Assembly (NCBI GenBank): GCA_030425485.1
Contig: JAUIAM010000032.1
Coordinates: 1 to 32,887, forward strand
Source of the DNA: Verrucomicrobiia bacterium
Lineage (GTDB): Bacteria; Verrucomicrobiota; Verrucomicrobiia; Opitutales; Cerasicoccaceae
Direction: 5' to 3'
Length of the DNA stretch: 32,887 nt
Part shown: piece after piece, positions 14,202 through 32,887 of the stretch
How the letters are laid out: each line of letters begins with the position of its first letter
Position numbering within the stretch: position 1 is the stretch's first letter
Program-made: the position numbers and the translations under genes
Notes under the pieces: model-generated
What the model saw: the letters and a program-made list of their open reading frames with translations, nothing else
Databases searched by the model: none
What the model was told of the DNA's origin: nothing

Positions 14202-14278
14202 TTTCTTAGTGAGTTTGTTTTGTTGTTTTGAAACCCGGACGCCCACACGCGTTGGCAATGGCCCCGCCCGGGAAAGTC

Positions 14279-15223: not shown

Positions 15224-15413
15224 GATAAAGGTACTAATACTTGTAGCGAGAGTATTGAATAAGGGCCTAGGAATTGACGGATTGGCTCGGCAGCGTCAAC
15301 TCTCTAATGTCCCCGTGACCGCGTTAAAGTTTAACAAATAACTTCGATTAGGAGCAGTAATGGCAATGTTTGCCGCTTGATTCCTGAGCTCAAGCCACCT
15401 AGCGTCCTCCCCC

Positions 15414-15635: not shown

Positions 15636-15639
15636 ACCT

Positions 15640-16140: not shown

Positions 16141-16196
16141 GCGGTGCAGCAAACCTCTCTATTATATGAGAACTTACCCGCCACTCGGCAGAAGCC

Positions 16197-18108: not shown

Positions 18109-18134
18109 TTTAATAATGCTGACCGGGATGCGAC

Positions 18135-18830
18135 TTACTTGTCAACGGCGCGGTAGCCTACCCCGCGCACCGTCTCGATGATGCCAGCGTGGTCCTCCAG
18201 CTTCTCGCGCAAACGGCGGATGTGGGTGTCCACGGTGCGCGTCTCAATGTCGGCTTCGTAATTCCAGACATTTACCAGCAGGTTCTCCCGACTCTGCACA
18301 CGGCCCTTTCGCTCCATCAGCAGCCGCAGCAGCTTAAACTCGGTCGCGGTCAGGTCGATGTCGCGTCCGTCCACAGCTAGGCGATGCTTTTCAATATCGA
18401 TCACCACCTTGCCAATGGCGATCTCACGCTCCTGCACCGTCTCCGTGCTCTGTCCCAAGCGCTTGAACAGGGCCTTGATGCGTAAAAGCAGCTCACGCGT
18501 GTCAAACGGCTTGCTGATGTAGTCATCCGCTCCTGTTTCGAAGCCTTTGATACGGTCTTCGGCCTCGCCACGGGCAGTCAAAAAGATAATCGGCACAGAC
18601 TTCATCACCGGGTCTGCCCGCAGCATGCGACAAATCTGGATACCGTTGAGGTCCGGCATCATGATGTCCAAAATCACCAGATCGGGGTGAAACGAGCGCG
18701 CCGTTCCCATTATCATCAGGGGATCGTTAATAACAGCCACGCGGAAGCCGTCTTGCCTCAATTTATAGTCCAAGAGTTCGGTAACGTCCGGTTCGTCGTC
18801 TACAACGAGTATTTTGCGATCTTTGTTCAC
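18135..18830 (-). CDS. phoB: PhoB-type response regulator
   Basis: This OmpR/PhoB-family regulator has 231 residues. The receiver domain has the acidic pair DD at 11-12, the phosphorylated D55 in VILDIMMPD, T85 of FLTARG, and K107 in YISKPFD. The winged-helix domain follows from about 130 (LTATEFKLLRLLMERKGRV... TRTVDTHIRRLREKL). The start is GTG at 18830; an in-frame TGA just upstream excludes a longer protein. Three 11-bp-spaced repeats lie about 140 nt upstream and could be its own binding site. Confidence 0.9.
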   Translation of the reverse strand: MNKDRKILVVDDEPDVTELLDYKLRQDGFRVAVINDPLMIMGTARSFHPDLVILDIMMPDLNGIQICRMLRADPVMKSVPIIFLTARGEAEDRIKGFETGADDYISKPFDTRELLLRIKALFKRLGQSTETVQEREIAIGKVVIDIEKHRLAVDGRDIDLTATEFKLLRLLMERKGRVQSRENLLVNVWNYEADIETRTVDTHIRRLREKLEDHAGIIETVRGVGYRAVDK

Positions 18831-18971
18831 AACACCATCAAGCTGTCCTCATTTTAGCAAAAAGCCAACTATGAAAACTTTTTGTAAAAAATATGCTAAG
18901 CTAGCCGATCACCCACCCATCACACGCATTAACGTACTGACCTGCAATGCCTTAAGAATCGACAATGCCCC

Positions 18972-19000
18972 GCGTAACACACCCGTAACGCTACCGTAAC
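18972..19000 (-). promoter_or_regulatory. Three 11-bp-period repeats, Pho-box-like
   Basis: On the minus strand the sequence reads GTTACGG-4 nt-GTTACGG-4 nt-GTTACGC: three 7-mers at an exact 11-bp period between mnmG and phoB. Seven-base direct repeats with 4-base spacers are the layout bound by PhoB/PhoP-type regulators in many bacteria, though the base sequence differs between phyla. It lies where an autoregulatory site for phoBR would be. Confidence 0.5.
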
Positions 19001-19015
19001 GGAAGTATCACAAAG

Positions 19016-20953
19016 CTAGCTTTTATCGTCGCGGTGTGCCTTAACCGCCACCATCAGCAAGCTGATATCTGCTGGGTTCACCCCACTGATGCGACTGGCC
19101 TGCCCGAGGTCTGCCGGGCGAATTTCTGCCAGCTTGAGCGCACTTTCCTTACGCAAGCCACTTATTTCCAAGTAATTAAAGTCACGAGGCAGCTTGATCT
19201 TGGAAACCGACTTGAGCTTTTCCACGTGGCGCATCTCACGCTCCAGGTAGCCGCGATAACAAACACGGTACATGACTTCCTCCCGCACAGCCTCACTCAA
19301 GGCAAGGAACTCAGCAGGCAGACCGGCCTCCGCGCTGGTCCGATTGCGGCGCAGCAAGTCCGCGTAGGTCCCACCGCGTGTGGTCTCACGCTCCAGTCGC
19401 TCGGTCCAGCCAGAAACAGCCTCCGCTTTCTCTTTCATACGCTCGAGACGCTCCGCCGGGACGAGCCCTGCCGCATCGGCATGCTTTAGCAGGCGCAGCT
19501 CTGCACTGGGGTGATTAAAGAGCAAACGGTACTCCGCCCGGCTGGAAAACATACGGTACGGCTCCTGAGTTCCTTTGGTTACGAGATCATCAATGAGCAC
19601 CCCAAGATAGGCCTCATCGCGCCCCAGCACGACCGGAGCCTCCCCTCGCACCTTCCGGACAGCATTCACCCCCGCCAGCAAGCCCTGCCCTGCCGCCTCC
19701 TCATAGCCAGAGGTACCGTTAATCTGCCCGGCAAAGAACAATCCCTCCACCAGCTTGGACTCCAGGCTCGGATAGAGTTGGGTCGGCGGGGCAAAATCGT
19801 ACTCCACCGCATAGGCCGGGCGTAGCATAACTGCATTAGCCAGCCCCTTCACGCTGCGCAGAATGTCGAGCTGGAGTTCAAAGGGCAGACTCGTAGACAG
19901 GCCGTTGATGTACCATTCGTCCGTATTGCGGCCCTCGGGCTCCAGAAAGAGCTTATGGACGGGCTTATCGGCGAATTTAACCACCTTGTCCTCAATACTT
20001 GGGCAGTAGCGTGGCCCCACCCCCTCGATCATGCCCCCGTAAAGGGGCGAAAGGTGAAGATTGTCGCGAATAAGCTCAGCCGTCTGCTCCGTGGTCGTCG
20101 TCTCCCAGCAAGCAACCTGATTCGTACCCGGAAGCCAACCTGCCGTGCGCTGGCCGGGCTGTTCCACGTGGAACAATGCTTCACATAGCCCCGGGTGATC
20201 CTTGAATTGTTCCACGTGGAACACTCGCTCCCCAAAGCGAGTATCATAGAAGGCAAACAGCGTGGGCCATTCATCCCCTAGTTGCTCCTCGCATTGGCTA
20301 AAATCAATACTTGAGCCCAAAATCCTCGGCGGAGTCCCGGTTTTGAGCCTTTCCAGCTTAATTCCAGCCTCAAGAAAACTGCCAGACAACCCTTTGGCCG
20401 AAAAATCCCCCAGGCGACCACCCTCATTGCGATTCTTACCGATATGCATCAGCCCGCGCAAGAAGGTGCCCGTCGTCACTACCACCGTTTTGGCGTAGAA
20501 CTCGACATCCAGGTTCGTTTTCACGCCCGTGACGGCATCCCCCTCGAAGATCAACCCGTCCACCATGGCCTGAAACGCCGTCAGGTTCGGCTGGCGCTCG
20601 ACGACGTGTTTTAGGCGAAACTGATAGGCTTTCTTATCGCATTGCGCCCGCGGAGCCTGCACTGCAGGCCCCTTCGAAGCATTTAGCAGTCTGTACTGGA
20701 TGGCGGTTAGGTCTGTGTTCAGCGCCATTTCACCACCCAGAGCATCAATTTCACGCACCATATGCCCCTTGGCCTGCCCACCAATAGCGGGGTTGCAGCT
20801 CATCTGGGCAATCGTGTCCAGATTACCTGTCAGCAACAGGGTATCTGCACCCATCCGGGCGGCAGCCAGAGCGGCTTCACAGCCGGCGTGTCCCGCCCCA
20901 CAGACAATGACGTCATAGGGCTGATGTGGTCCGAATTTAAGGGGTGGCTTCAT
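19016..20953 (-). CDS. mnmG: tRNA uridine-5-carboxymethylaminomethyl modification enzyme MnmG
   Basis: MnmG, an FAD enzyme, works with MnmE to modify the wobble uridine of several tRNAs. The 645-residue protein has the dinucleotide fold DVIVCGAGHAGCEAALAAARMG (14-35), SCNPAIGGQAKGH, GTFLRGLMHIG, the MnmG segments EGVGPRYCPSIEDKV and INGTSGYEEAAGQGLLAGVNA, and the C-terminal domain ending in ISGVNPADISLL. Between LGDEWP and CWETTTTEQ (about 231-281) it carries some 30 more residues than E. coli MnmG, including FHVEQ twice (245-249, 261-265), which are two parS-like palindromes in the DNA. The ATG at 20953 overlaps the mnmE stop as ATGA; a TTG 12 nt upstream is less likely. Confidence 0.97.
   Translation of the reverse strand: MKPPLKFGPHQPYDVIVCGAGHAGCEAALAAARMGADTLLLTGNLDTIAQMSCNPAIGGQAKGHMVREIDALGGEMALNTDLTAIQYRLLNASKGPAVQAPRAQCDKKAYQFRLKHVVERQPNLTAFQAMVDGLIFEGDAVTGVKTNLDVEFYAKTVVVTTGTFLRGLMHIGKNRNEGGRLGDFSAKGLSGSFLEAGIKLERLKTGTPPRILGSSIDFSQCEEQLGDEWPTLFAFYDTRFGERVFHVEQFKDHPGLCEALFHVEQPGQRTAGWLPGTNQVACWETTTTEQTAELIRDNLHLSPLYGGMIEGVGPRYCPSIEDKVVKFADKPVHKLFLEPEGRNTDEWYINGLSTSLPFELQLDILRSVKGLANAVMLRPAYAVEYDFAPPTQLYPSLESKLVEGLFFAGQINGTSGYEEAAGQGLLAGVNAVRKVRGEAPVVLGRDEAYLGVLIDDLVTKGTQEPYRMFSSRAEYRLLFNHPSAELRLLKHADAAGLVPAERLERMKEKAEAVSGWTERLERETTRGGTYADLLRRNRTSAEAGLPAEFLALSEAVREEVMYRVCYRGYLEREMRHVEKLKSVSKIKLPRDFNYLEISGLRKESALKLAEIRPADLGQASRISGVNPADISLLMVAVKAHRDDKS
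20160..20175. promoter_or_regulatory. parS: parS-like site 1 inside mnmG
   Basis: TGTTCCACGTGGAACA is a perfect 16-bp palindrome and matches the known ParB (Spo0J) binding site, in the GTTCCACGTGGAAC variant used by many bacteria. It is in the mnmG frame and codes for FHVEQ. ParB loads the chromosome partition complex at such sites, normally near the replication origin. Confidence 0.88.
20208..20223. promoter_or_regulatory. parS: parS-like site 2 inside mnmG
   Basis: This is a second identical 16-bp TGTTCCACGTGGAACA, exactly 48 bp (16 codons) from the first, so both are read in the same frame as FHVEQ. Two perfect copies this close cannot be chance. parA and parB are not in the window. Confidence 0.88.
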
Positions 20954-22308
20954 TTTCCGATGCAAAAATTAGCAAATAGCTGGTCGAGCATGGCTTCATT
21001 ATCAATCTTGCCCACAACCTCTCCAAAGGCCTCAACTGCCAGGCGCAGCTCCGAGGCCACGAGCTCGGCCGGGCCTTCATCCCGCAGCAGGACACGAGTG
21101 GCGTCTATGGCCTCAACCGCGCGGCCCAAGGCCGTAGCGTGGCGAGCGCTCACGATGAGTTCATCGGGCTCAGGTACGACGCGGCCAGAGCTTAGCGTCT
21201 CCACAAGCGCATCTTTCAGGGTGTCAAAGCCCGTCTGATCCTTAAGCGACAAACGAACGTGCCGGAGCTCTGGCAGCACCGCAGCCATATCAGCACTAGT
21301 GACGAGGTCGCACTTATTTTCGATGACCAGAGAATTGTCCGGTGTAAAGCGGGCCATAACCTCTGGGGGCAGAGTAGGGGAGGGCTCGGCACTGTCGAGT
21401 ACGATCAGGTAGAGGTCCGCTGCCTCAAGGCGCTGGAGGGTTTTTTGCATGCCCATTTGCTCGATGCTGTCATCGCTCTCGTGCAATCCCGCCGTGTCCA
21501 TGAGCTGCAGTACCACATCGCCCACGACGACGCGCTCGGTCACGACATCGCGTGTCGTGCCGGGAATATCGCTCACGATAACGCGGTCTTGGCCGACGAG
21601 TGCATTAAGCAGGCTACTTTTGCCCGCATTGGGAGCACCCACGATGACGGCCTTGACACCCTCGTGAAGAAGGCTCGCATAATGCTGTGTATCAATAAGT
21701 TGAGAAATATTCAAGCGTAAGTCTTTAAGCAGGCGCAGCGGCCCCTGGCTATCCTCGGTAGGCAAATCCTCCTCTGGAAAATCGATATAGGCTTCGATCT
21801 CGGCCTGGATGCGCAGGAGGCGGTTAGTGTACTCCTGCATGCGCGAGCCGAGAGCTCCGCTGAGTTGGCGATGAGCTGCGTGCAGGGCGCGCTCGCTACG
21901 AGCGTGGATGAGGTCGATCACCGCTTCAGCCTGACTCAGGTCGAGCTTACCGTTGAGAAAAGCGGTACGGGTAAACTCGCCCGCTTCGGCCATACGGCAC
22001 CCCCGCTTGAGAAGGTCTTCCATCACCAGTTGTACAATGAGAGGGCTACCGTGCAGGCTAAGCTCAAGCATCGGCTCGCCAGTGTAGGTAGACTCTCCGG
22101 GGAAAAACAGCGCTACGCATTTATCCAAGAGCTTGTCTCCCAGAGATTTATACTCGCGCAAGTGAGCTACTCTGGTCTTGAGCGGCTGAGACTGGGTGAA
22201 GCATTCGAGGGCCAGGCGCTCGCAAGCGGGCCCGCTGATGCGGACGACTGCGAGGGCCGACTCTCCGGCTGGGGTGGACAGGGCCACCATGGTCTCTCCA
22301 AAAGGCAT
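20950..22308 (-). CDS. mnmE: tRNA modification GTPase MnmE
   Basis: MnmE is the partner GTPase of MnmG. The 452-residue protein has the N-terminal folate-binding domain (1-120, with HGSPLIVQLVMEDLLKRGCR and AGEFTRTAFLNGKLDLSQAEAV). The GTPase domain has GAPNAGKS (224-231), DIPGTTRD (247-254), DTAGLHE and an NKCD box. The C-terminal FCIGK carries the essential cysteine C449. All features are normal. Its stop overlaps the mnmG start as ATGA, coupling the two partners in translation. The ATG at 22308 gives the family N-terminus. Confidence 0.97.
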   Translation of the reverse strand: MPFGETMVALSTPAGESALAVVRISGPACERLALECFTQSQPLKTRVAHLREYKSLGDKLLDKCVALFFPGESTYTGEPMLELSLHGSPLIVQLVMEDLLKRGCRMAEAGEFTRTAFLNGKLDLSQAEAVIDLIHARSERALHAAHRQLSGALGSRMQEYTNRLLRIQAEIEAYIDFPEEDLPTEDSQGPLRLLKDLRLNISQLIDTQHYASLLHEGVKAVIVGAPNAGKSSLLNALVGQDRVIVSDIPGTTRDVVTERVVVGDVVLQLMDTAGLHESDDSIEQMGMQKTLQRLEAADLYLIVLDSAEPSPTLPPEVMARFTPDNSLVIENKCDLVTSADMAAVLPELRHVRLSLKDQTGFDTLKDALVETLSSGRVVPEPDELIVSARHATALGRAVEAIDATRVLLRDEGPAELVASELRLAVEAFGEVVGKIDNEAMLDQLFANFCIGK

Positions 22309-22362
22309 ATCAGTTAGAGAGTTTCACGACGCCTCTGGCTGGCGTCACGCCGAAAATGTCAT

Positions 22363-22659
22363 CTAGGCCAGCGGGAGTGCAATCAGCAAGCCCAACTGCG
22401 CCGTAACAATCAGGCACAGCGAGGCGAAGAAGATCCACTTGCGCCAGGGAATGACGGGGCTGTAGTAGATGATGCGCCCGCAATAGAGCAGGGCAAAAGC
22501 ACCGACCGACAGGCACAACAGCGGGTAATGGACGAAGCCCAGCCCGAGGATGCTTAGCAGGTAGACGAACAGTACGGCACCAAAGGGCAAGGTAAGCATG
22601 GGCCAGAAGATCACCCATTCGGGTGAGCGACAGCTCTTGAAGGGCTGAGCACTGAGCAT
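22363..22659 (-). CDS. Small three-helix membrane protein, unknown
   Basis: The 98-residue product is hydrophobic throughout, with about three membrane segments (residues 18-40, 43-61 and 73-96) and short polar loops (GRIIYYSP, PWRK). An overlapping frame on the same strand is less hydrophobic and Arg/Pro-rich, so this frame is taken as the gene. It lies between recA and mnmE in the same orientation, 54 nt ahead of mnmE. No family recognised. Confidence 0.6.
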   Translation of the reverse strand: MLSAQPFKSCRSPEWVIFWPMLTLPFGAVLFVYLLSILGLGFVHYPLLCLSVGAFALLYCGRIIYYSPVIPWRKWIFFASLCLIVTAQLGLLIALPLA

Positions 22660-22740
22660 ACCTCAGCATAGCATAGCCTGCGAGGCTTTCCCATCGTGCC
22701 TGTCATTGAGCCGGGTGGGGAAATATCCCGTATTGCGCGG

Positions 22741-23805
22741 CTAGTCTTCGCTGGAGGAAAGCTCCTTGGATTCCGCAAGCGCCATTCCTCCAACAACTTC
22801 CACCTTTTCAAGAATTTTTGACTGAATCTCCTGTAGCACCTTCGGGTTTTCCTTCAGGTAGGCCTTGGCCGCTTCACGCCCCTGGCCGATCAAATCGCCA
22901 TTGTAGCCAAACCATGCCCCCTTCTTATCAAGCAGCTTGTGCTCAACGCCGAGGTCGATGATTGAGCCCGTGCGGGAGATACCCTCGCTGTACATGATGT
23001 CGAACTCGCACTCAGTAAAGGGCGGAGCGACCTTGTTCTTTACGACCTTGATGCGGGTGCGGTTGCCCTTGACGGCACCGGAGGTGTCCTTGATCTGGCC
23101 GATGCGGCGGATATCGATACGCACGGAGGAGAAAAATTTGAGAGCGCGACCGCCGGGTGTGGTTTCCGGGCTGCCGAACATGACGCCGATCTTCTCACGT
23201 ATCTGGTTGGTAAAGATGCAAATACACTTGGTTTTGTTGATAGCGCCCGTGAGGCGACGCATGGCCTGGCTCATCATACGGGCCTGGAGGCCGACGGTGG
23301 TATCACCCATCTGGCCATCCAGCTCATTACGGGAGACGAGGGCCGCGACGGAGTCTACCACTACGACATCGACTGCGCCGGAGCGGATGAGCGTCTCGGT
23401 GATGTTGAGCGCATCCTCGCCGGATTCCGGCTGTGAGACCATGAGGTTATCGAGGTCGACCCCGACGACCTTGGCGTAGCGGGGGTCGAGGGCGTGCTCG
23501 ACATCGACAAATACAGCGTTTCCGCCTTGGCGCTGGACTTCGGCGATAATGGAAAGGCAGAGGGTGGTTTTACCCGATGACTCCGGGCCGTAAATTTCGC
23601 AGATACGACCGCGGGGCAGGCCACCGACGCCGAGCGCGAGGTCGATGGCAACGGAGCCGGTGGAGACGGTCTCCACGTTGAGCTTGGTCGAGTCGCCAAG
23701 GCGCATGATGGCGCCTTCGCCAAACTGCTTGTTGATGGTGGAGATCGCGAAATCGAGTGACTTCGCGTCGTTGGCGGGGGCGGATGCTTTTTTGCTAGAG
23801 GCCAT
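22741..23805 (-). CDS. recA: Recombinase A
   Basis: RecA drives homologous recombination and triggers LexA self-cleavage in the SOS response. The 354-residue protein has Walker A GPESSGKT (73-80), the [10 protein letters not shown] Walker B stretch, loop L1 ([26 protein letters not shown]), loop L2 ([27 protein letters not shown]), and an acidic C-terminus ending in SSED. Length is normal. It is monocistronic or first of a group with the small membrane protein 81 nt behind. A near-perfect palindrome lies 64 nt upstream. Confidence 0.99.
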
Positions 23806-23868
23806 GGTAATGCGTTTTTAGCCAGCTTGTGAGCTCGTAGGCTGAGCGCAAGCTTAATGTGTTAATTT

Positions 23869-23887
23869 GTTCACTATTTTAGTGTAC
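23869..23887. promoter_or_regulatory. Palindrome in the recA control region, possible SOS operator
   Basis: GTTCACTA-TTT-TAGTGTAC has arms that match at 7 of 8 positions around a 3-nt centre, 64 nt upstream of the recA start. LexA sites in this position are general in bacteria, but the motif differs between phyla, and I cannot say this is the one used here. No LexA gene is in the window. Confidence 0.45.
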
Positions 23888-23959
23888 GTCAGACTGAAGC
23901 TCATAATAATGATGGTGGGATTCTTTTGACAGGGTGGGGGAATCCGGCATTTTGCCCGC

Positions 23960-24391
23960 ATGCCCCCTGCGTCCCATGCTATCCCGCCCCAACGCCTGGC
24001 TGGCCTGCGCTATGCGCGTGCGGCTGGCGTGGCGGTAGGCCTGTTTCTTATCGCGTGGTCTCCGTTTAATGTCCTGCGCTGGCAGGATGGGGGGCAAGAA
24101 GCGCTGCTCAACTTTCAGTTCCTGTTCTTCATCGCCTACGGGGTGCTGCTGGCCCTGCCGTGGAGCCGGATTCACACCGAACGCACCTTTCGCCTGGCCT
24201 TCGGCATATTGATCGTCTTTTCGGCAGCCTTTGCCTTTGTCATGGTCATCGACCTGATGTTTCAGGCCGTGCTGGCTTCTAACACCGAGAGCAAGCCCGC
24301 GCCGCCCGCCTTTCAGGGCATGCTGCTCTTTGGTGCGCTCCTCCAGCTCCCCACGGTGCTGTTCTCGCGTCGTCCGCAGTTGCTGGGCTAG
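23960..24391 (+). CDS. Four-helix membrane protein, unknown
   Basis: The 143-residue product has a short polar N-terminus and about four membrane segments (residues 20-40, 52-67, 78-101 and 118-135), with a Pro-rich loop (NTESKPAPPAF) before the last. The gene is divergent from recA, sharing a 154-nt control region. The composition and positive-inside pattern fit a real inner-membrane protein. I recognise no family. Confidence 0.6.
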   Translation: MPPASHAIPPQRLAGLRYARAAGVAVGLFLIAWSPFNVLRWQDGGQEALLNFQFLFFIAYGVLLALPWSRIHTERTFRLAFGILIVFSAAFAFVMVIDLMFQAVLASNTESKPAPPAFQGMLLFGALLQLPTVLFSRRPQLLG

Positions 24392-24450
24392 GTGTTTTTT
24401 CCATCAAGCGGCTGGCCAAAGGCGGAGTTGCACCTATAGATAAAAACACT

Positions 24451-25098
24451 GTGGCCTATCGACATATCATTTGGGACTGGAATGGCACCCTGCTGGACGA
24501 TGCCTGGCTGTGCCTGGAGATTTTGAACAACATCACCGGGCGGCGGCAGATGCCCGCAGTTAGCCTGGATGCCTACCGGGCCGAGTTCGGCTTCCCTGTG
24601 GTGGACTACTATCGCAAGCTCGGCTTCGACCTCGTGCAGGACTCATTCGACGTCATCAGCCGCGAGTTTATGGACGAGTACAATACCCGCCGCATGGAGT
24701 GCCACCTCTTTAGCGAAGCACAGCCCACGGTCGCCGCCGTACACGGGCTGGAAATCGACCAGGTGATTCTTTCCGCCCACCCCCAGAAGACGCTGGGCGA
24801 AATCGTTGAGCTCTTTGGCTTGAGCCGTTTTTTTAGCCGCATGATCGGGCTGGATAATATCTACGCTGCGGGCAAGGTCGACAACGGCAAGGCGCACATG
24901 GCCTCGCTCTCACACGCCCCACACGAGGTGCTCCTCATTGGCGATACGGTGCACGACTTCGAGGTCGCGCGCGAAATCGGCTCCGACTGCGTGCTGCTGG
25001 AGGGCGGACATCAGGACCGTGCCCGACTGGAGGCCTGCGGCGTACCCGTACTGCGCTCGCACCGTGAGCTGCGGGCGTTCCTGGAAGCGGAAAAATAG
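24451..25098 (+). CDS. HAD-superfamily hydrolase, phosphoglycolate-phosphatase-like
   Basis: The 215-residue protein begins at a GTG. It has the HAD nucleophile motif as WDWNGTLLDD (8-17), where the catalytic pair is D9 and a position normally Asp that is here Asn, as in some members of the family. Motif II serine is in VILSAHPQ, the motif III lysine in AAGKVDNGKAHM, and motif IV in LLIGDTVHDFEVAREIG. The cap is the helical type between motifs I and II. Substrates cannot be read from sequence; the DxN change may affect catalysis. It ends tail to tail with mntR. Confidence 0.85.
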   Translation: MAYRHIIWDWNGTLLDDAWLCLEILNNITGRRQMPAVSLDAYRAEFGFPVVDYYRKLGFDLVQDSFDVISREFMDEYNTRRMECHLFSEAQPTVAAVHGLEIDQVILSAHPQKTLGEIVELFGLSRFFSRMIGLDNIYAAGKVDNGKAHMASLSHAPHEVLLIGDTVHDFEVAREIGSDCVLLEGGHQDRARLEACGVPVLRSHRELRAFLEAEK

Positions 25099-25175
25099 GC
25101 CCCCAGCTCCAAAGCCGGATGATGGGCAGAGAAATGCTTTTCTTCTCCTCGCTTCGCGTTTGCGGCAACAGGACA

Positions 25176-25604
25176 CTAGCCGCGCTCGCGCTGACGGATC
25201 AAGCGCCGCATGGCCCGCAGGGTCTCTTCGCTCAGGTGATGCTCGATGCCCTCGGCGTCGGCTTCGGCTCTGGTGTTGGAAACCCCCAGCACGCGCAGGA
25301 ACTTCACCACCAGCTCGTGTCGCCGAGCCGATTCCTGAGCCATCTGTTGCCCTTCAGCGCTGAGGCGGATGCCCTCCTTGCGTGAGCGCTCAAGCAGCCC
25401 GCGGGCCTCCAGACGGTCCAGCGCCCGGATGACGGAGACGTGGGACACCCCGAAAATGCCCTGCAAATCCGTCACGCGCGCCTGCTCATTTTCCTCAAGC
25501 AGCCCGTGAATGGCCTCAACATAGTCTTCGGCCAACTCGTCGTTGTGCTGACGGCGCACGCGCTCATGCCGCTGGGCCACAGGTTTCAGGGTATCATCTG
25601 CCAT
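25176..25604 (-). CDS. mntR: Manganese-dependent transcriptional repressor MntR
   Basis: This DtxR-family regulator closely matches the E. coli MntR pattern. The winged helix has DLQGIFGVSHVSVIRALDRLEARGLLER. The metal-binding dimerisation domain has RRHELVVKFLRVLGVS and DAEGIEHHLSEETL, in which H, E and EH are metal ligands. The ATG at 25604 (142 residues) has GGAG at a good distance and is preferred over one 36 nt upstream. It is divergent from mntABCD, with two palindromes between. Bound to Mn2+ it should shut off the transporter and probably itself. Confidence 0.92.
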   Translation of the reverse strand: MADDTLKPVAQRHERVRRQHNDELAEDYVEAIHGLLEENEQARVTDLQGIFGVSHVSVIRALDRLEARGLLERSRKEGIRLSAEGQQMAQESARRHELVVKFLRVLGVSNTRAEADAEGIEHHLSEETLRAMRRLIRQRERG

Positions 25605-25647
25605 AGGATTCTCCACTTTGTGTAGAAAAGTCGTTGACAAGTCAAGA

Positions 25648-25665
25648 ATGTAGCACAGGCTACAT
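25648..25665. promoter_or_regulatory. MntR operator 1
   Basis: ATGTAGC-ACAG-GCTACAT is a perfect 18-bp palindrome, 43 nt upstream of mntR. It shares the TAGC-N4-GCTA core with the E. coli MntR box. It can control mntR and is also upstream of mntA. A loose TTGACA (25634-25639) lies beside it. Confidence 0.75.
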
Positions 25666-25704
25666 TTCAGCTACACCATCACTTTTATATGCAACAATCC
25701 ATTT

Positions 25705-25720
25705 TGTAGCCTAAGCTACG
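25705..25720. promoter_or_regulatory. MntR operator 2
   Basis: TGTAGC-CTAA-GCTACG repeats the same palindrome with one mismatch in the outer base. It ends 11 nt before the mntA start codon, where a ribosome site would be, and no Shine-Dalgarno sequence is visible there. A lone half-site GCTACA lies at 25670-25675. Confidence 0.75.
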
Positions 25721-25731
25721 TCCATAATCCT

Positions 25732-26736
25732 ATGAGAATTATATCCAAGTTTACCGCGACTATCTGCACAGCCCTGTTGTGTCTGCTCGGCCCCAGTGCC
25801 TGCGGCGCACCTGACTCAAACCAAAGCCGCTCACCCGAAACGACAAAAACGCCCTACACCGTGGTTACGACGGTGGGCATGATTACGGACATTGTCCGCA
25901 ATGTGGCCGGAGACAAAGCCGAGGTCGAGGGGCTGATCGGAGAGGGGATCGACCCTCACCTCTACAAGCCTACCCGCAACGATGTCGTCGCGCTCGACCA
26001 GGCCGACGTGGTCTTTTATTGCGGTCTCATGCTCGAAGGCAAGATGACCGATGTCTTCACCCGGGTGGCCCGGCGCGGTAAGCCCGTCTATGCGGTAACT
26101 GAGGACATCGCCACGCAGGACGGATTCGTCATCATCGACGAGGAGCAGCACTACGACCCGCATGTGTGGATGGACGTCAAGGGCTGGATGGATGCAACCC
26201 AAGTCGTTGCGCGGGCCTTGAGCGAGTACGACCCCGCCAACACCGACTACTATCAAGCCAATGCCGAGGCTTACCTCAAAAAGCTGACCGCGCTCGATGC
26301 TTACACCCGCGACGTCCTCGGCTCCATCCCCCAGAACCAGCGCGTGTTGGTCACCGCGCACGACGCCTTTAACTACATGGGGCGCGCCTACGGACTAGAG
26401 GTCAAGGGCATCCAGGGCATTTCGACCGAGTCCGAAGCCGGGGTGCGCGACATCGAGGAACTGGTTACCTTTCTTGTCGAGAACAAGATCCCGGCCGTCT
26501 TTGTCGAAACCTCTGTCTCGGACAAGAACGTGCGCGCACTGCTTGAGGGGGCAAAGGCCCGGGGGCACACCGTCGCCATCGGAGGCGAGCTATTCTCCGA
26601 CGCGATGGGCCCGGCTGGCAGCTACGAAGGAACCTACATCGGCATGATCGACCACAACGCCACCACCATCTCGCGCGCCCTGGGCGGTGACGCGCCCGAA
26701 GGTGGCCTTAACCACAAGCTGCCGCACGAGCATTGA
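25732..26736 (+). CDS. mntA: Manganese ABC transporter, substrate-binding lipoprotein
   Basis: This TroA/PsaA-family binding protein has 334 residues. The N-terminal 23 residues are a lipoprotein signal with the modified cysteine C24 (GPSAC). The mature protein has the metal ligands H76 (IDPHLYKP), H144 (YDPHVWMD), probably a glutamate in GISTESEAG (233-235), and D290 (LFSDAMG). This set fits Mn2+ or Fe2+ better than Zn2+, whose proteins usually have a His-rich loop. First gene of mntABCD, under the two MntR operators; the ATPase follows 16 nt on. Confidence 0.93.
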
Positions 26737-26752
26737 TTTTGTATCGAAAAAA

Positions 26753-27556
26753 ATGGATACACCCGATAACAGCTCCTCCAAGGCCTGGGACCACTCGCCC
26801 AGCGCCCCCCTGTCCATCCATGACTTGACTGTGGCCTACCACCGCAAGCCGGTTATCTGGGACATCGATCTGGACATCCCGGAAGGCAAGCTGGTCGGCA
26901 TCATCGGGCCCAATGGCGCGGGCAAGAGCACCCTGCTCAAGGCTTGCCTGGATCTGATCCCCAAAGCCTCCGGCACAGTACAGGTCTATGGCAAGGACTA
27001 CCGCAAGCAGCGGGCCAAGGTCGGCTACGTGCCCCAGCGCGAGAGCGTAGACTGGGACTTCCCGGTCAGCGCGCTGGACGTGGTCACCATGGGTATTTAC
27101 CGGCAGGTAGGCTGGTGCAGGCCCATCCTTGGCCGCCACAAGGCCGTAGCCCGAAAAGCACTGGAGCATGTGGGTATCGGGCACCTGGCAGACAGGCAGA
27201 TCAGCCAGCTCTCCGGCGGCCAACAGCAACGGGTGTTTCTGGCCCGCGCACTGGCTCAGGACGCGCAACTGTACTTCATGGACGAACCCTTTGCCGCGGT
27301 CGATGCCGCCACCGAGCGCGCGATCATTACGCTGCTGAAGGAGCTCAAATCCCAGGGCAAGACCGTGCTCGTCGTTCACCACGATCTGGCCACCGTAGCC
27401 CAGTACTTTGACTGGGTCATCTTGCTGAACATGCGCGTCGTCGCCGCCGGGCCGACCGGGGAGGTCTTTACTCAGGAGAACCTGAAAAACACCTACGGCG
27501 GAAAGCTCACCCTGCTGGCCGAAGCCGGGCACGCGCTTTCCCAGCTCAAGTCATGA
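26753..27556 (+). CDS. mntB: Manganese ABC transporter, ATP-binding protein
   Basis: The 267-residue ATPase has Walker [10 protein letters not shown] (52-60), the Q-loop [13 protein letters not shown] (92-103), signature LSGGQQQR (153-160), Walker B LYFMDEP (173-179) and the switch His in VVHHDL. The VPQR-x-x-VDWDFP Q-loop is typical of the Mn/Fe-type transporters. The frame is open from 26687, but the 22 extra residues overlap mntA, so the ATG at 26753 is used. Its stop overlaps the next gene as ATGA. Confidence 0.95.
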
Positions 27557-28938
27557 CCCACCGTTTACTCGCATCGATGGCTTTCGAGTGGCCCGGTCTG
27601 GATGCGGTCTGGCGCGTGGCCACGTTGCAGGACTACAACACGCGGCTGGTCGTGCTGAGCACCTTCATCCTCGGGCTGGCCTCGGGGCTTATCGGGAGTT
27701 TTCTGCTCCTGCGCAAACGCTCGCTGATGGGCGACGCGCTTTCGCACGCCTGCCTTCCGGGCATCGGCATCGCCTTCATCGTGATGTCGTTGGCCGGAGG
27801 GGAGGGCAAGTCGCTACTCGGGCTGCTCATCGGCGCCAGCGTAACCGGAGTAGCCGGCGTGGGGCTCGTGCTGGCCGTACGCAACACCTCCCGCATCAAG
27901 GACGATACGGCGATGGGCATCGTGCTGAGCGTATTTTTCGGCGGAGGAGTGGTCGTGCTGAGCTTGGCTCAACCCATGCCCGGTGCGCAAGCTGCCGGGC
28001 TGGAGTCCTTTATCTACGGCAAGACGGCCTCCATGATCTGGAACGATTTTCTGCTCATCTCGGGAGTAGCGGCGGCGGTGCTGGTTGCTTCATTACTCTT
28101 CATGAAGGAATTTACGCTGCTGGCATTTGATGATAGCTATGCCCAGAGCCAAGGCTGGCCCATCCATGCTCTGGACGTCCTGATGCTTTCGTTAGTGGCA
28201 GCGGTCACGGTGGTCGGGCTGCAGGCCGTAGGGCTTATTCTGATTATTGCCTTTTTAATAACACCTGCCGCAGCGGCCCGGTTCTGGACCAATAACCTGC
28301 GCCGCATGCTCGTGCTGGCAGCGGTGATTGGCGGGGTTAGCGGCTGGCTCGGGGCAGCGGTGAGCGCGCTTCTGCCGCGGCTCCCTGCCGGGGCCGTGAT
28401 TGTGCTCGTGGCGGCCTTTATTTTCACCCTGAGCATGTTCTTTGGCAGCGCGCGCGGGGTGCTCAAGCGCAGCCTGGCGCAGCGGAACCTCAAGCGTAAA
28501 GTCGGACGCCAGCACTTGCTGCGTGCGGTCTTCGAACTACAGGAGGCGAGCTTTTGCAACACTGTGCGCGAGACACCCCCCAACGTCTCGGTGGCCTTCG
28601 ACATGCTTTTGAACAAGCGTAGCTGGTCGCCCCAGCAATTGCGAAAGCTCATTCGCCGGGCGGCCCGCGAGGACCATATCGAAGTCTTCGATGGCAAAAC
28701 GCTGCGCCTGTCCGAGTCCGGGTTTGGCGAAGCGGCCCGCACCACCCGCAATCATCGCCTCTGGGAGCTGTTTCTCATCACCCACGCCGACATCGCGGCC
28801 AGCCATGTGGACCGCGACGCGGACTCGGTCGAGCACGTGCTGAGCGCCGACATGGTGCGCGAGCTGGAGGAAAAACTCGACACGCGGCACCTCCCGGCCA
28901 GCCCGCACCCCATCGCTACGAAGGGAGCCAAGGCATGA
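27553..28938 (+). CDS. mntC: Manganese ABC transporter permease with a C-terminal DtxR/MntR-like domain
   Basis: Residues 1-300 are a standard ABC-3 permease with about eight helices, including [18 protein letters not shown] and [16 protein letters not shown]. Normal members end here at 280-300. This one continues to 461 residues with a basic linker and a winged-helix-like part (about 310-390: [26 protein letters not shown]). After that comes a stretch like the metal-sensing domain of DtxR/Mnt[18 protein letters not shown] (399-415) and DADSVEHVL (422-430), which keep the spacing of the His and the Glu-His ligands. The extension would be cytoplasmic. It overlaps its neighbours on both sides as ATGA. 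Confidence 0.9.
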
Positions 28939-29870
28939 CCTGGTACGCTATTGACACCTGGATCGTAGTCATCGGGGCACTCTGTGCCATGGCCGCTGCC
29001 CTGCCAGGCTGTTTCCTCGTGCTGCGAAAAATGAGCATGATGGGTGACGCGATCAGCCACGCCGTTTTGCCGGGGCTAGCTATCGCCTTCCTTGTCACCG
29101 GGTCGCGGGCGAGTTTTTCCATGTTCATCGGGGCGGCCATCGTCGGCGTGCTCACCGCCGTCTTTACCCAGTGGATCAGTAATTGGGGCAAGGTCGACAG
29201 CGGGGCCTCGATGGGGATCGTCTTTACCACGCTGTTTGCCGTGGGGCTCCTGCTTATCGTGCAGGCCGCTGACCACGTCGACCTCGACCCGGGCTGTGTC
29301 CTCTACGGTGCCATCGAGCTGGCCCCCTGGGACATTGCCACCACCTGGACCCTCGGGGGCGTCCAACTGGAAATTCCCCGCGCGGCCTTGGTTTTGGGCT
29401 CCGTCTTTCTTTTCAATCTGCTCATCGTGATCTTCTTTTTCAAGGAGCTGAAAATCGCGGCCTTCGACCCTGACCTGGCCACCACGCAGGGCATCAACGC
29501 GAACCTCATGCACTACCTGCTCATGACGCAGGTGGCCGTGACCACCGTGGCATCCTTTGAGGCGGTGGGCAGTATCATCGTGATCGCGATGCTCATCGTG
29601 CCTGCGGCGACGGCTCACCTCTTAACGGATCGCCTCGGCGTCATGTTGATACTGGCCGCCGGGCTGGGCGCCATGGCCGCCGGGGCAGGGCACTTGATGG
29701 CGTTGCTCCTGCCGGGCTGGCTGGGGTTTGAGAGCGCGACAACCTCCGGCATGATGGCGGTGGCCACGGGCGTGTTTTTCCTCCTGGCCTGGATGCTGGC
29801 ACCACGCTACGGTCTGCTGACCAAGACCCTGACCACCAAACGCATCCGCCACTCCCGAGAGCTATCGTAA
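28935..29870 (+). CDS. mntD: Manganese ABC transporter, second permease
   Basis: The 311-residue ABC-3 family permease has about eight membrane helices and the family segments MSMMGDAISHAVLPGLAIAF, DSGASMGIVFTTLFAVGLL and FEAVGSIIVIAMLIVPAATAHLL. It has no C-terminal extension, unlike mntC. The start overlaps the mntC stop as ATGA. The two permeases should form the heterodimeric channel of the MntABCD importer. Confidence 0.94.
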   Translation: MTWYAIDTWIVVIGALCAMAAALPGCFLVLRKMSMMGDAISHAVLPGLAIAFLVTGSRASFSMFIGAAIVGVLTAVFTQWISNWGKVDSGASMGIVFTTLFAVGLLLIVQAADHVDLDPGCVLYGAIELAPWDIATTWTLGGVQLEIPRAALVLGSVFLFNLLIVIFFFKELKIAAFDPDLATTQGINANLMHYLLMTQVAVTTVASFEAVGSIIVIAMLIVPAATAHLLTDRLGVMLILAAGLGAMAAGAGHLMALLLPGWLGFESATTSGMMAVATGVFFLLAWMLAPRYGLLTKTLTTKRIRHSRELS

Positions 29871-29872
29871 AG

Positions 29873-30019
29873 CTAACTGCCCGAGCGAGACTCGTACTGC
29901 CAGATCACGAAACACAGGAGCAACGCGCCCATAATCAGAAAGAAGGTCGCGGGCTCCGGCAGGTGAGCGTGTGGTTCCACCAGGCCCAAGAGGGGTTGCA
30001 TGACTTGCGGTACAGGCAT
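29873..30019 (-). CDS. Micro-ORF with a PEP-CTERM-like tail, possibly a remnant
   Basis: This 48-codon frame encodes an N-terminal polar part, then LPEPATFFLIMGALLLCFVI, WQYESRSGS. The PEP-AT followed by one membrane helix resembles the C-terminal sorting signal of exosortase (PEP-CTERM) proteins, but the usual Arg cluster is reduced and there is no signal peptide. It could be a small real membrane protein or the end of a decayed gene. It lies against the end of mntD and 75 nt from the tRNA fragment. An in-frame stop lies upstream and the ribosome site (AAGGG) is distant. Confidence 0.4.
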   Translation of the reverse strand: MPVPQVMQPLLGLVEPHAHLPEPATFFLIMGALLLCFVIWQYESRSGS

Positions 30020-30094
30020 GCGAGCAGCATAACGCCCTTAAGCTTAACAACAGATTAAGCCGCGCGCACTTTACACGCTTTTAGCAGAAGAAAA

Positions 30095-30142
30095 TGGTCG
30101 GGGCAGCAGGATTCGAACCTGCGACCCTCTGCTCCCAAAGCA
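30095..30142 (-). other. 3' half of tRNA-Pro(UGG): attachment site of an integrated element
   Basis: Read on the minus strand this is TGC-TTTGGGA-GCAGA-GGGTC-GCAGG-TTCGAAT-CCTGC-TGCCCCG-A-CCA: the anticodon loop with UGG, the 3' anticodon strand, variable loop, a perfect T-arm, 3' acceptor strand, discriminator A and encoded CCA. To the right, where the D-arm and 5' half should be, the sequence is unrelated and AT-rich. So this is a 3' tRNA fragment of the kind left by integrases that recombine at tRNA genes. A T-rich run (TTTTCTTCT) follows its 3' end. Confidence 0.85.
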
Positions 30143-30211
30143 TGATTTCATAATATCTTTAATATATGGTTATGCGCAATATATAGAATTCAATAAAAAC
30201 AAAACGTTGAC

Positions 30212-30234
30212 AGTTGCCCAAATAGTTGCCCAAA
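30212..30234. repeat. Direct repeat AGTTGCCCAAA in front of the integrase
   Basis: AGTTGCCCAAA occurs at 30212-30222 and 30224-30234 (12-bp period), 6 nt before the integrase ATG, in an AT-rich stretch of about 100 nt. A TTGACA overlaps it at 30207-30212. Short direct repeats next to an attachment core fit arm-type integrase sites or an integrase operator. Confidence 0.5.
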
Positions 30235-30241
30235 ACTCTTT

Positions 30242-31639
30242 ATGGCTCGGCCCACCAAAGAGGAACGTTTCAAGGTAAAATCTTTCAAGAACGACAGTGG
30301 CACTTCCTCATGGAGGGTAACAGGCTACTGGCCTGATGGGAAGCGGGAACGCAAGAACTTTAGCCATAAGGCAGAGGCCTGGGAGTATCGGGCCAAGATA
30401 GAGGTTGAAGCCGAAGGCAAGGAGGTGGACTACGACCTCCAGCGCACCTCACTCACACGGGAGCAATTAACGGATGCAGAAAGCGCGTTATCACTGGCTG
30501 AAGGGCAGTCGCTTACCCGGATCGTGTCGCATTACCATAAGCTCAAGGCCGAGATACATGACCAGACGGGACTGACGCTCGACCGGGCCGTTCACTACCT
30601 GTCTACTCACTACAAACCAGAGATCCAGGACGTCTCCATTACGGCGGCGATCGAGCAATTTCTAGTGAGCAAAAAGGACTACAGTGAAAAGACGCTCGCC
30701 CATTATGAGACTTGCCTGCAGCTCTTTCGCAAACTCAACCCCAATACACTCGTACATCGCATCGGTTTGCAGGAGATTGAGCCGATACTGTCTAAGTATA
30801 ACAACATCAATACCAAGCGCACCTATCGTCGAGGGCTGACCACCTTCTTTAATTGGTGCGTGCGTCGTCACTATGCCTTGGAAAACCCCTGTGATCGCCT
30901 CGACACGCTACCCGCTGACAGATCACAGGTGTCAATCCTGAGCTTGGGGGAGGTGAAGCGCTTGCTCCGGGCAGCTATGCTTTACCACGAGGGGGCTATG
31001 GCTGCCTACGTAGCCATCGGGCTCTTTGCGGGGCTACGGCCAAGCGAAATCCAAGATCTGGAGTCCCAGGATATTAAAGACGGCTACATCGTGGTCAAGG
31101 GGGGCAAGATGAGGCGAAAAATGAAACGCCGGGTGCCCCTCCCGGATATCCTGAGAACTTGGCTGGAGGTATATCCTTTTCAGGGGACGCCAAGTGGCTA
31201 CGCCTACAAGCTGAGGAAGTTGAAGGAAGCTACGAACGCAGCACGTTGGGTTCAGGATATCATTCGCCATACATCGATCAGCTTCCAACTCGAACGCGAT
31301 AAGGACGAGGCACGCACTGCCTTTAACAATGGCACCTCACGTCAGATGATAGAGCGCCACTACCGGGACGTAGTCGAGAATCCTCAGGACGTGGAGGACT
31401 ACTGGCAGCTGAGTCCTGAATCCCTGAAAACCATCACCGTCGAGTTGCCGACCGGACAGGGCATCGACAACTGGCCCTCCGACCAGAAACTCGCCAAGCT
31501 CGTCTATGAAAAGCCCCTGACCCACATCGCAAAAGACCTGGGCGTATCCGACAACGCCGTGCGCAAACGCTGCCTCACACGCGACATCAAGCTACCAAAA
31601 AACGGCTACTGGCAGCGGAAAGCCGTGGGTTTCAGTTGA
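30242..31639 (+). CDS. Tyrosine-type integrase with a C-terminal helix-turn-helix tail
   Basis: This recombinase has 465 residues. An N-terminal DNA-binding part (1-130) is followed by a core-binding SAM-like domain (about 131-222) and a catalytic domain (about 228-378). Catalytic residues are R266 in AGLRPSEI, a lysine in KGGKMRRKMK (287-295), R342 in DIIRHTS, and the nucleophile Y374 in MIERHYRDV. The usual His of the H-x-x-R box is D339, and the LGHSS box reads FNNGTS, as I recall in related verrucomicrobial integrases. Residues 411-457 look like a helix-turn-helix (LTHIAKDLGVSDNAVRKRCLTRDI) ending in PKNGYW. The stop lies 45 nt from the CRISPR array. The tRNA fragment next to it supports integrase function. 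Confidence 0.92.
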   Translation: MARPTKEERFKVKSFKNDSGTSSWRVTGYWPDGKRERKNFSHKAEAWEYRAKIEVEAEGKEVDYDLQRTSLTREQLTDAESALSLAEGQSLTRIVSHYHKLKAEIHDQTGLTLDRAVHYLSTHYKPEIQDVSITAAIEQFLVSKKDYSEKTLAHYETCLQLFRKLNPNTLVHRIGLQEIEPILSKYNNINTKRTYRRGLTTFFNWCVRRHYALENPCDRLDTLPADRSQVSILSLGEVKRLLRAAMLYHEGAMAAYVAIGLFAGLRPSEIQDLESQDIKDGYIVVKGGKMRRKMKRRVPLPDILRTWLEVYPFQGTPSGYAYKLRKLKEATNAARWVQDIIRHTSISFQLERDKDEARTAFNNGTSRQMIERHYRDVVENPQDVEDYWQLSPESLKTITVELPTGQGIDNWPSDQKLAKLVYEKPLTHIAKDLGVSDNAVRKRCLTRDIKLPKNGYWQRKAVGFS

Positions 31640-31684: not shown

Positions 31685-32887
31685 GTTTCAATCCGCGCCC
31701 CCGTGTGGGGGCGACGTCCTACCTGGTCTGCCGCCATGTGGAACAACAGGTTTCAATCCGCGCCCCCGTGTGGGGGCGACATGGCACGGATACAAACACC
31801 TGGTGGGATGATGAGGTTTCAATCCGCGCCCCCGTGTGGGGGCGACGCACTGGATGCACCTTCCCGAAACCCCCAAACTCGTTTCAATCCGCGCCCCCGT
31901 GTGGGGGCGACATGGGGCACCAGAGGATGGGTCTCCTACAGAGAGTTTCAATCCGCGCCCCCGTGTGGGGGCGACATGAGGCAGACTAAAAATAATCACT
32001 CACCACTAAGGTTTCAATCCGCGCCCCCGTGTGGGGGCGACATTATAGGGGTGAGTAGTGTCCCTGACATACATCGTTTCAATCCGCGCCCCCGTGTGGG
32101 GGCGACGATCTGGAAGCTTTCTTCCTTAGCTTTTAGGTACGTGCGGTTTCAATCCGCGCCCCCGTGTGGGGGCGACTGGTTGATCTTCGCAAAGTCCCCA
32201 AAAGCAGCATAGTTTCAATCCGCGCCCCCGTGTGGGGGCGACGCGGCGCACGTTTAACCGATAATAAGTAATGTATGGTTTCAATCCGCGCCCCCGTGTG
32301 GGGGCGACGATAAGGTGAATCACCTGTCCATTGACACCGCCAGTGTTTCAATCCGCGCCCCCGTGTGGGGGCGACAAGGCCCGCGATCAGATTGCTACCC
32401 TCGCTGCCGAGTTTCAATCCGCGCCCCCGTGTGGGGGCGACGTAAAGCTAGCTATGCAGGTGGCAGGGCACAAGCCGTTTCAATCCGCGCCCCCGTGTGG
32501 GGGCGACGACTACACCGCTGAGGCCAGCGATCATCACAAGTGGTTTCAATCCGCGCCCCCGTGTGGGGGCGACAACCGCGTTGCAAGACGCTTTATCGGC
32601 CGGCGCTGTTTCAATCCGCGCCCCCGTGTGGGGGCGACTAAGGAAATCCAGGCTGACCTGCGGGCGATCAAGGTTTCAATCCGCGCCCCCGTGTGGGGGC
32701 GACGGGATGCCGTAGCTTTCGAGCATGCGCAGCAGAAGGTTTCAATCCGCGCCCCCGTGTGGGGGCGACCAGGGCCTCCAGCCTGAGCGGGGCTTGTACG
32801 AGGTTTCAATCCGCGCCCCCGTGTGGGGGCGACGCGCAGGCCTTCAGCTTGGGGCGGACGCGACGAAGGGTTTCAATCCGCGCCCCC
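31685..32887 (-). CRISPR. CRISPR array, subtype I-C-like, 18 complete repeats plus one cut by the window edge
   Basis: The 31-bp repeat starts GTTTCAATCC and ends GGGGGCGAC; CGCCCCC-GTGT-GGGGGCG is a perfect 7-bp stem with a 4-nt loop. Starts are at 31685, 31750, 31816, 31881, 31945, 32011, 32076, 32146, 32212, 32278, 32345, 32411, 32477, 32543, 32608, 32673, 32739, 32803 and 32870 (the last cut at 18 nt). The 18 spacers are 33-36 nt except one of 39 (32107-32145), and all look different. All repeats look identical. Read on the minus strand the repeat is GTCGCCCCC...GGATTGAAAC, the known I-C form, where the crRNA handle precedes the spacer; so the array should be transcribed leftward from a leader to the right of the window. 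No cas gene is visible. Confidence 0.97.

What the first reader, a model, noticed from the sequence alone, without database searches (positions are those of the whole stretch)
30095..31639. tRNA-Pro(UGG) 3' fragment plus integrase marks the left end of an unseen element
The 48-nt tRNA fragment stops abruptly inside the anticodon stem and is followed by AT-rich DNA and an integrase. The fragment's orientation means the element runs to the right and the intact tRNA-Pro should lie at its other end. Since the CRISPR array sits inside, the element may be a mobile CRISPR-carrying island.
Basis: partly seen in the sequence, partly recalled or inferred. Interest (0 to 1): 0.75.

Follow-up and report, generated by a model that had tools for sequence, protein, structure and literature searches.

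The report
tRNA-anchored mobile island carrying CRISPR-Cas

Summary
Window 30095-30142 is an exact 48-nt 3' fragment of tRNA-Pro(UGG), followed by AT-rich DNA and a tyrosine integrase (30242-31639). The window is a whole contig that ends inside the CRISPR array. The only other contig with that repeat, C60, begins inside an array in the same orientation and continues with a complete type I-C cas operon, cargo, and the intact tRNA-Pro(UGG) at C60:25181-25258. The element is 27,973 bp plus an unassembled piece of array. Both ends carry a 51-bp core repeat and a double AGTTGCCCAAA repeat found at exactly these two places in 3.81 Mb. Joining the flanks gives one intact tRNA-Pro. A relative in another genus, on one contig, has the same anatomy without CRISPR. 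The conserved backbone includes a protein resembling Rep_trans/MOBT rolling-circle initiators in fold and catalytic residues. Most likely it is an integrative, possibly mobilizable element with CRISPR-Cas as cargo: a new member of a known kind. No empty site in a sister strain was found; movement is untested.

The parts
1..30094 (.). chromosomal flank to the left of the element (includes mnmG 19016-20965, mnmE 20950-22308, recA 22741-23805, a znuA-type metal ABC operon 25732-29870)
   Evidence: Pfam; GC 0.586 against 0.534 in the element
30092..30142 (.). core direct repeat of the attachment site: 51 bp, exactly repeated at the intact tRNA-Pro on contig C60
30095..30142 (-). displaced 3' fragment of tRNA-Pro(UGG), nucleotides 31-78
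   Evidence: 48 of 48 identical to the intact tRNA at C60:25181-25258
30143..30241 (.). AT-rich left arm of the element (72% A+T)
30212..30235 (+). double repeat AGTTGCCCAAATAGTTGCCCAAAA, probable arm-type integrase site (inference); the matching copy is at C60:25045-25068
   Evidence: exactly two places in the 3.81-Mb genome at up to 2 mismatches, reversed control 0
30242..31639 (+). tyrosine integrase, 465 aa; R266, K289, R342 and Y374 invariant in 12 aligned sequences (itself and 11 relatives), with an invariant D339 in place of the usual H of the HxxR box; extra conserved C-terminal domain
   Evidence: the roles given to the catalytic residues are recalled
31685..32887 (-). CRISPR array, leader-distal part (18 complete 31-bp repeats plus 18 bp of the next); it continues at C60:1-722 (11 repeats) up to the stretch beside cas2. 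Strand and leader side are inferred from the repeat's orientation and the position of cas2

Best explanation
This is the integrase end of an integrated element of at least 28 kb in a Verrucomicrobiota chromosome. A tyrosine integrase recombined the element's attP, which carries a copy of the tRNA-Pro 3' half, with the chromosomal tRNA-Pro(UGG), within the region of the anticodon stem-loop. The element's copy restored the tRNA (now C60:25181-25258) and the original 3' half was displaced to the far side (window 30095-30142). The order is: tRNA 3' fragment, AT-rich arm, integrase, CRISPR array, cas2-cas1-cas4-cas7-cas8c-cas5c-cas3 (complete type I-C), cargo, DUF932 protein, PD-(D/E)XK exonuclease, a 164-aa protein, a Rep_trans/MOBT-like initiator, a small protein (perhaps DNA-binding), arm repeats, intact tRNA-Pro. 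Shown here: the ends, the gene content and the existence of relatives with the same backbone and other cargo. Inferred: that the Rep_trans-like protein nicks and replicates the excised circle and could let it be mobilized by a helper's conjugation machinery, since no conjugation or capsid genes were recognised; that the small protein is an excisionase; and that the CRISPR-Cas is cargo that protects host and element against other mobile DNA.
For: Ends: exact 48-nt fragment and intact tRNA-Pro(UGG) with matching orientation; 51-bp core repeat, and joined flanks give an intact tRNA-Pro(UGG) by ARAGORN; the arm double repeat is at exactly two places in 3.81 Mb. Join: the CRISPR repeat is on two contigs only, 18 + 11 copies, same orientation, array cut by both contig ends. 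Content: complete I-C operon. GC 0.534 against 0.586 and 0.595 in the flanks. Relatives: G005, another genus, has on ONE contig an exact 48-nt tRNA-Pro(CGG) fragment, a related integrase, a 32-bp repeat at both ends and the intact tRNA about 43.7 kb away, with the same gene order beside the tRNA; G133 has the same order beside tRNA-Pro(UGG), its two ends being on two contigs; G001 has a 64.7-kb interval between the intact tRNA-Pro and a 52-nt fragment at the same tRNA. Rep_trans-like protein: the only PDB hit of Foldseek at E <= 0.001 is RepDE 4cwc, E = 1.3e-5, and RepDE/Rep structures rank 1-3 with Z 9.4-9.7, 202-227 residues aligned at 4.1-7.3 A; D7, D119, Y167, K169 and E221 are invariant in 6 of 6 members, in the order of the D / D / YxK / E set shown to be needed for nicking in a MOBT relaxase (PMC6499999, passages).
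Against: The contigs are joined through an unassembled array gap, not by reads. No empty site was found, and the left-flank genes are not beside the site in the stretches fetched from G001-G003. The Rep_trans-like protein has no Pfam match at E <= 1; of its 6 aligned members one has a chance-level match to an unrelated model (LPD34, E = 0.16) and none matches PF02486; its profile finds no Rep among PDB sequences (best DciF, E = 0.31); its TM-scores are low (0.33/0.43), and TBP structures score Z 6.2-8.1 on the same model. The small protein beside the tRNA has only a weak excisionase-family match (E = 0.039) and no fold match in PDB at E <= 0.001 (best E 2.7). Nothing here shows excision or transfer.
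Confidence: 0.93

Rival explanations
1. The integrated element is real but dead: an immobile remnant whose integrase and CRISPR-Cas are kept only for host benefit (a domesticated defence island).
For: No conjugation, capsid or terminase gene was recognised among its 20 predicted proteins of 96 aa or more (not every library for every protein); no integrase relative was found in viral contigs or plasmids.
Against: Integrase uninterrupted with invariant residues kept, both att cores identical over 51 bp, arm repeats intact at both ends, Rep-like protein intact; integrase relatives are patchy (11 of 372 genomes of the order, this one included).
Confidence: 0.3
2. The fragment and the intact tRNA do not belong to one element: C3 and C60 are two unrelated loci that both happen to hold CRISPR arrays, and the fragment is the scar of another element or a decayed tRNA copy.
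For: The join is not shown by reads; the array gap is unassembled.
Against: The repeat is on two contigs only, both cut by the array, in complementary orientation; matching 51-bp cores and matching arm repeats found nowhere else in the genome; the same anatomy on a single contig in G005.
Confidence: 0.04
3. The element is a degenerate prophage or phage satellite and not a conjugation-dependent element.
For: The integrase matches the PHROG integrase family phrog_1 (E = 2e-26) and the exonuclease matches phrog_69 (E = 1.3e-23); the model of the 377-aa protein matches five unnamed viral proteins in BFVD at E <= 0.001 (best 8.4e-10).
Against: No structural or packaging gene was recognised in the element; the integrase has no relative in viral contigs by the peptide-pattern scan, and the megablast of 30040-32000 against phages matched only the tRNA stretch.
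Confidence: 0.15

Closest known systems
tRNA-targeted genomic islands with tyrosine integrases, as mapped by Islander (PMC4383910, abstract and passages)
   Same: tRNA 3' fragment and restored tRNA at the two ends, integrase inside, fragment downstream of the tRNA in the same orientation, anticodon-loop sub-site
   Different: the two ends are on separate contigs here; carries a complete CRISPR-Cas system
pKLC102-type conjugative island with type I-C CRISPR-Cas in Pseudomonas aeruginosa (PMC7913775, abstract and passages)
   Same: complete type I-C system on an integrated island with its own site-specific recombinase
   Different: pKLC102 is reported there as conjugative and able to excise; here no conjugation genes were recognised and excision is untested, the host phylum is Verrucomicrobiota, and the backbone differs. 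Many pKLC102 spacers match known mobile DNA; here only one spacer gave a hint of its target
Integrative mobilizable elements with their own Rep_trans/MobT relaxase in Firmicutes (PMC7563843, abstract and outline; PMC6499999, passages)
   Same: integrase plus a Rep_trans-like protein with the catalytic residues, no transfer machinery of its own recognised
   Different: no Pfam PF02486 match, no N-terminal HTH fused to the protein; the elements of that paper mostly sit in oriT of host elements, this one in a tRNA; transfer not shown

Membership tests
tRNA-integrated genomic island (Islander criteria) | intact tRNA gene plus a displaced 3' fragment of it in the same orientation, fragment downstream | tested here: met
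   the placement on one replicon is inferred through the array gap
tRNA-integrated genomic island (Islander criteria) | integrase gene of the tyrosine recombinase family between the two | tested here: met
   PHROG integrase E = 2e-26; Pfam PF00589 E = 7e-5, below the curated cut-off; invariant R, K, R, Y in 12 aligned sequences
tRNA-integrated genomic island (Islander criteria) | length 2-200 kb | tested here: met
   27,973 bp plus the unread array gap
   left-flank genes not beside the site in stretches of G001-G003; the virtual empty site gives an intact tRNA
CRISPR-Cas type I-C | cas3, cas5c, cas8c, cas7, cas4, cas1, cas2 with an array | tested here: met
   (TIGR01863, TIGR02589, TIGR01876, TIGR03640, TIGR00372, TIGR01573 above cut-off; for cas3 the core and HD domain models); array
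Integrative and conjugative element (ICE) | own conjugation machinery | tested here: inconclusive
   no conjugation gene recognised among 20 predicted proteins scanned against Pfam, PADLOC, NCBIfam or PHROGs, each library for part of them; the gap in the array is unread and ORFs under 90 aa on C60 were not scanned
Integrative mobilizable element with Rep_trans/MOBT relaxase | catalytic set D, D, YxK, E of Rep_trans/MOBT | tested here: met
   invariant in 6 of 6 aligned members, matched by order and motif to the residues named in PMC6499999; no structural superposition of the residues was made
Integrative mobilizable element with Rep_trans/MOBT relaxase | match to PF02486 Rep_trans | tested here: not met
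   no such match in any of 6 members at E <= 1; the closest solved fold is RepDE
Integrative mobilizable element with Rep_trans/MOBT relaxase | oriT nicking and transfer with a helper | not testable with these tools
   needs a bench test

The most novel reading that the evidence does not exclude
The island belongs to an undescribed family of integrative elements in Verrucomicrobiota. It pairs an integrase family that cuts tRNA genes at the anticodon loop with a divergent Rep_trans/MOBT-type initiator and an exonuclease module beside the restored tRNA, and exchanges large cargo: a complete type I-C CRISPR-Cas here, apparent sulfatases and transporters in another genus. One spacer encodes the catalytic-tyrosine segment of a tyrosine recombinase, so the element may use its CRISPR system against rival integrating elements.
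Probability: 0.35. Interest if true: 0.65.

Novelty: new member of a known kind. Interest (0 to 1): 0.5.

Why it matters
It shows how a whole adaptive immune system can be packaged with an integrase, a tRNA landing site and a possible rolling-circle initiator in a phylum whose mobile elements seem little studied, and it gives a testable backbone (tRNA, small protein, Rep-like protein, 164-aa protein, exonuclease, DUF932, then cargo, then integrase and tRNA fragment) by which more such elements can be found. It also points to a way through an assembly break: two contigs of this draft genome are most likely joined through one CRISPR array.

Tried and rejected
Phage and plasmid origin: megablast of 30040-32000 against phages matched only the tRNA stretch, in 7 records; the integrase scan of viral contigs found no relative, nor did plasmids; the Rep-like protein had none in viral contigs or plasmids. 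The viral scans use short peptide patterns and reach close relatives only.

Empty site: the right flank is conserved in G001-G003 (tRNA-Pro(UGG) beside the NUDIX gene in 3 of 3 genus mates), but in the stretches fetched around the site the left-flank genes are not next to it in any of the three. G002 has an intact tRNA-Pro with no arm repeat in the 250 bases shown and no relative of the element genes in the 15 kb fetched beyond it, so it may be unoccupied, but it is not a matched empty site.

Spacers: the two array parts had no match in phages at E <= 1. My first comparison with the fetched loci hid perfect matches of 33 nt or more together with the array's own, so I repeated it with the array masked in all 129 loci: 29 spacer queries (two of them from the contig ends), best match C5 to L107 (see the full report), otherwise at most 17 nt aligned. 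Spacer C5 had no place at up to 3 mismatches in 54 genomes other than the array itself; 23 nt of spacer C10 had none in viral contigs. The other spacers were not searched one by one in viral contigs or genomes, and plasmids were not searched with the array.

Inversion: from G001 alone I first thought that the block p164-exonuclease-DUF932 had been inverted in this element; G005 and G133 have the same order and orientation as here beside the tRNA, so I dropped it. Excisionase: a fold search of the small protein gave nothing at E <= 0.001; it stays an inference.

G003's type I-C system lies on C35 with no tRNA gene and no relative of this integrase or of the backbone genes in 36 kb, so type I-C in the genus is not always on this kind of element. 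Rows dropped: L047's integrase reading contains two stops and was left out of the alignment; relatives L050, L051, L054, L059-L061, L063-L065 and L067 (some partial or identical copies) were not put into it.

Full report
What is there. The window is the whole contig C3 of the genome (32,887 bp). Its right end lies inside a CRISPR array. At 30095-30142 there is an exact copy of nucleotides 31-78 of a tRNA-Pro(UGG), minus strand. It breaks off three bases into the 5' strand of the anticodon stem. In 100 shuffles the longest match was 16 nt. The next 99 bases are 72% A+T, and a 465-aa tyrosine integrase follows at 30242-31639. Left of the fragment are ordinary chromosomal genes: mnmG, mnmE, recA and a metal ABC transporter.

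The other end. A search of the whole genome with the fragment region gave three places: the fragment itself, an intact tRNA-Pro(UGG) on contig C60, and tRNA-Pro(GGG) at 82%. C60 starts inside a CRISPR array with the same 31-bp repeat. A search allowing 2 mismatches found 29 copies in the genome, 18 on C3 and 11 on C60, all identical, all in one orientation, and none on any other contig. C60 carries the side of the array next to cas2 and C3 the other side. The two contig ends are therefore most likely one array with an unassembled gap; this join is inferred, not read. From 30143 to C60:25228 the element measures 27,973 bp plus the gap.

The attachment sites. The two ends share 51 bp exactly, and the flanks joined without the element give one intact tRNA-Pro(UGG). 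Inside each end lies AGTTGCCCAAANAGTTGCCCAAAA, in direct orientation, at exactly two places in 3.81 Mb at up to two mismatches, with none for the reversed control. These look like arm-type binding sites of the integrase (inference).

Content. On C60 minus strand: cas2, cas1, cas4, cas7, cas8c, cas5c, cas3, each matched by type I-C or general cas models above their cut-offs; for cas3 it is the core and HD domain models that pass. Then DUF5131, a PEP-CTERM protein, a 1,319-aa protein with a TSP3 repeat and four proteins without a family match at E <= 0.001, then DUF932 and a PD-(D/E)XK nuclease (phrog_69 exonuclease), a 164-aa protein, a 377-aa protein, a small protein of 155-158 aa, the arm repeats and the intact tRNA. 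The array holds 27 complete, different spacers between repeats, one more complete spacer before the cut repeat at the end of C3, and a partial one at the start of C60.

The 377-aa protein. It has no Pfam match at E <= 1 and none of its 6 aligned members matches PF02486 (one has a chance-level match to another model). A profile search of PDB sequences gave no Rep (best E = 0.31). An AlphaFold model from 6 sequences (mean pLDDT 75) has the rolling-circle initiator RepDE as its only PDB hit at E <= 0.001 (1.3e-5, TM-scores 0.33/0.43), and on realignment two RepDE structures and Rep of Geobacillus rank 1-3 with Z 9.4-9.7. TBP structures follow at Z 6.2-8.1. D7, D119, Y167, K169 and E221 are invariant in 6 of 6 members. 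In the MOBT relaxase RelSt3 the residues D72, D177, Y252, K254 and E280 were each shown to be needed for nicking (PMC6499999, passages read). The correspondence is by order and motif, not by a structural superposition. MOBT relaxases have an N-terminal HTH fused to the domain (same passages); this protein starts at the core and lacks it. It may be a replication initiator, a relaxase or both.

Relatives. 11 of 372 genomes of the order, this one included, hold the integrase at E <= 1e-30, and a scan of named genomes gave 5 loci, all titled as members of Verrucomicrobiota. I read the DNA upstream of 10 integrases (9, eight of them chosen because a tRNA match was known, and G005); the others were not read. 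All 10 have tRNA-3'-half-like sequence directly upstream. By eye these are tRNA-Pro(UGG), Pro(CGG) and, less surely, tRNA-Thr and tRNA-Val. In four genomes the fragment matches the same genome's intact tRNA: G001 52 nt, G003 47 nt, G005 48 nt, G133 48 nt; in G003 and G133 the two ends are on different contigs. G005 is the best control, since both ends are on one contig: fragment at C11:322194, tRNA at C11:365886-365963, with a 32-bp repeat inside both ends. Its gene order beside the tRNA is the same as here, as is that of G133; G002 has the first two genes beside a tRNA-Ala before its contig ends. G005's cargo looks like sulfatases and a transporter (read by eye). G001 has a 64.7-kb interval at the same tRNA-Pro; it holds a second, different integrase with another tRNA-like fragment (read by eye), so it may be composite, and there the block p164-exonuclease-DUF932 follows the integrase instead. 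No CRISPR array was found in the stretches fetched from G001, G005 and G133. Of 14 distinct loci of the Rep-like protein (the split hits of G002 C124 and G005 C37 counted once each), 6 have a tRNA gene within the fetched flank and 8 do not.

Type I-C distribution. Cas8c was found in 14 of 372 genomes of the order, this one included, and the only other one in the genus, G003, has it away from any element of this kind. This patchiness fits horizontal transfer but does not prove it.

A spacer against a recombinase. Spacer C5 (C60:328-361) encodes LAMRTYGHVRD. A degenerate pattern from nine of these residues found one viral contig; the hit lies in the catalytic-tyrosine region of a tyrosine recombinase (Pfam E = 2e-13) and matches the spacer at 28 of 34 bases and all 11 residues. 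The pattern fixed nine residues beforehand, so only the gene's identity and the two further residues are independent support. The contig is a relative of the target, not the target. No other spacer gave a lead.

Literature. Tyrosine-integrase islands in tRNA genes are well known (PMC4383910, abstract and passages), and a type I-C system on an excising conjugative island is published (PMC7913775, abstract and passages). For Verrucomicrobiota I saw one paper on CRISPR in the phylum, which in the passages read does not place it on islands (PMC6920513). The searches for such elements in this group (the last found no paper) listed nothing that by title describes this family; no wider claim is made.

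Verdict. The finding is right and its main prediction is verified, subject to the inferred join. It is a new member of a known kind: a tRNA-anchored integrative element carrying type I-C CRISPR-Cas. Whether it still moves, and by whose machinery, is open.

Noticed in passing
window 27553-28938: One ORF joins an ABC-3 metal permease to a DtxR-type Fe_dep_repr_C domain; a 76% identical counterpart over 449 aa is in G003. It recalls the chlamydial YtgC-YtgR fusion (from memory).
   Followed up: no
L070, L074 (G001:C1:1009575-1011500): Inside the G001 interval at tRNA-Pro lies a second, distant integrase with another tRNA-3'-like sequence beside it in the opposite sense (by eye): perhaps nested or tandem elements.
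   Followed up: partly
L063, L065, L068 (G003 C41, C42, C43): Three contigs carry copies of one integrase with the same score, two of them shown identical, at or near contig ends: perhaps a repeated element that broke the assembly.
   Followed up: no
L016:405-4364 (C60:13905-17864): A 1,319-aa secreted-looking cargo protein with a TSP3 repeat ends in an HEVGH-type zinc-protease-like motif (motif recalled; sequence); function unknown.
   Followed up: no
L070:2220-5922 (G001): The G001 interval also carries a kinase-like protein matching candidate defence models and a DUF5131-like protein, the latter as in the window's element.
   Followed up: no
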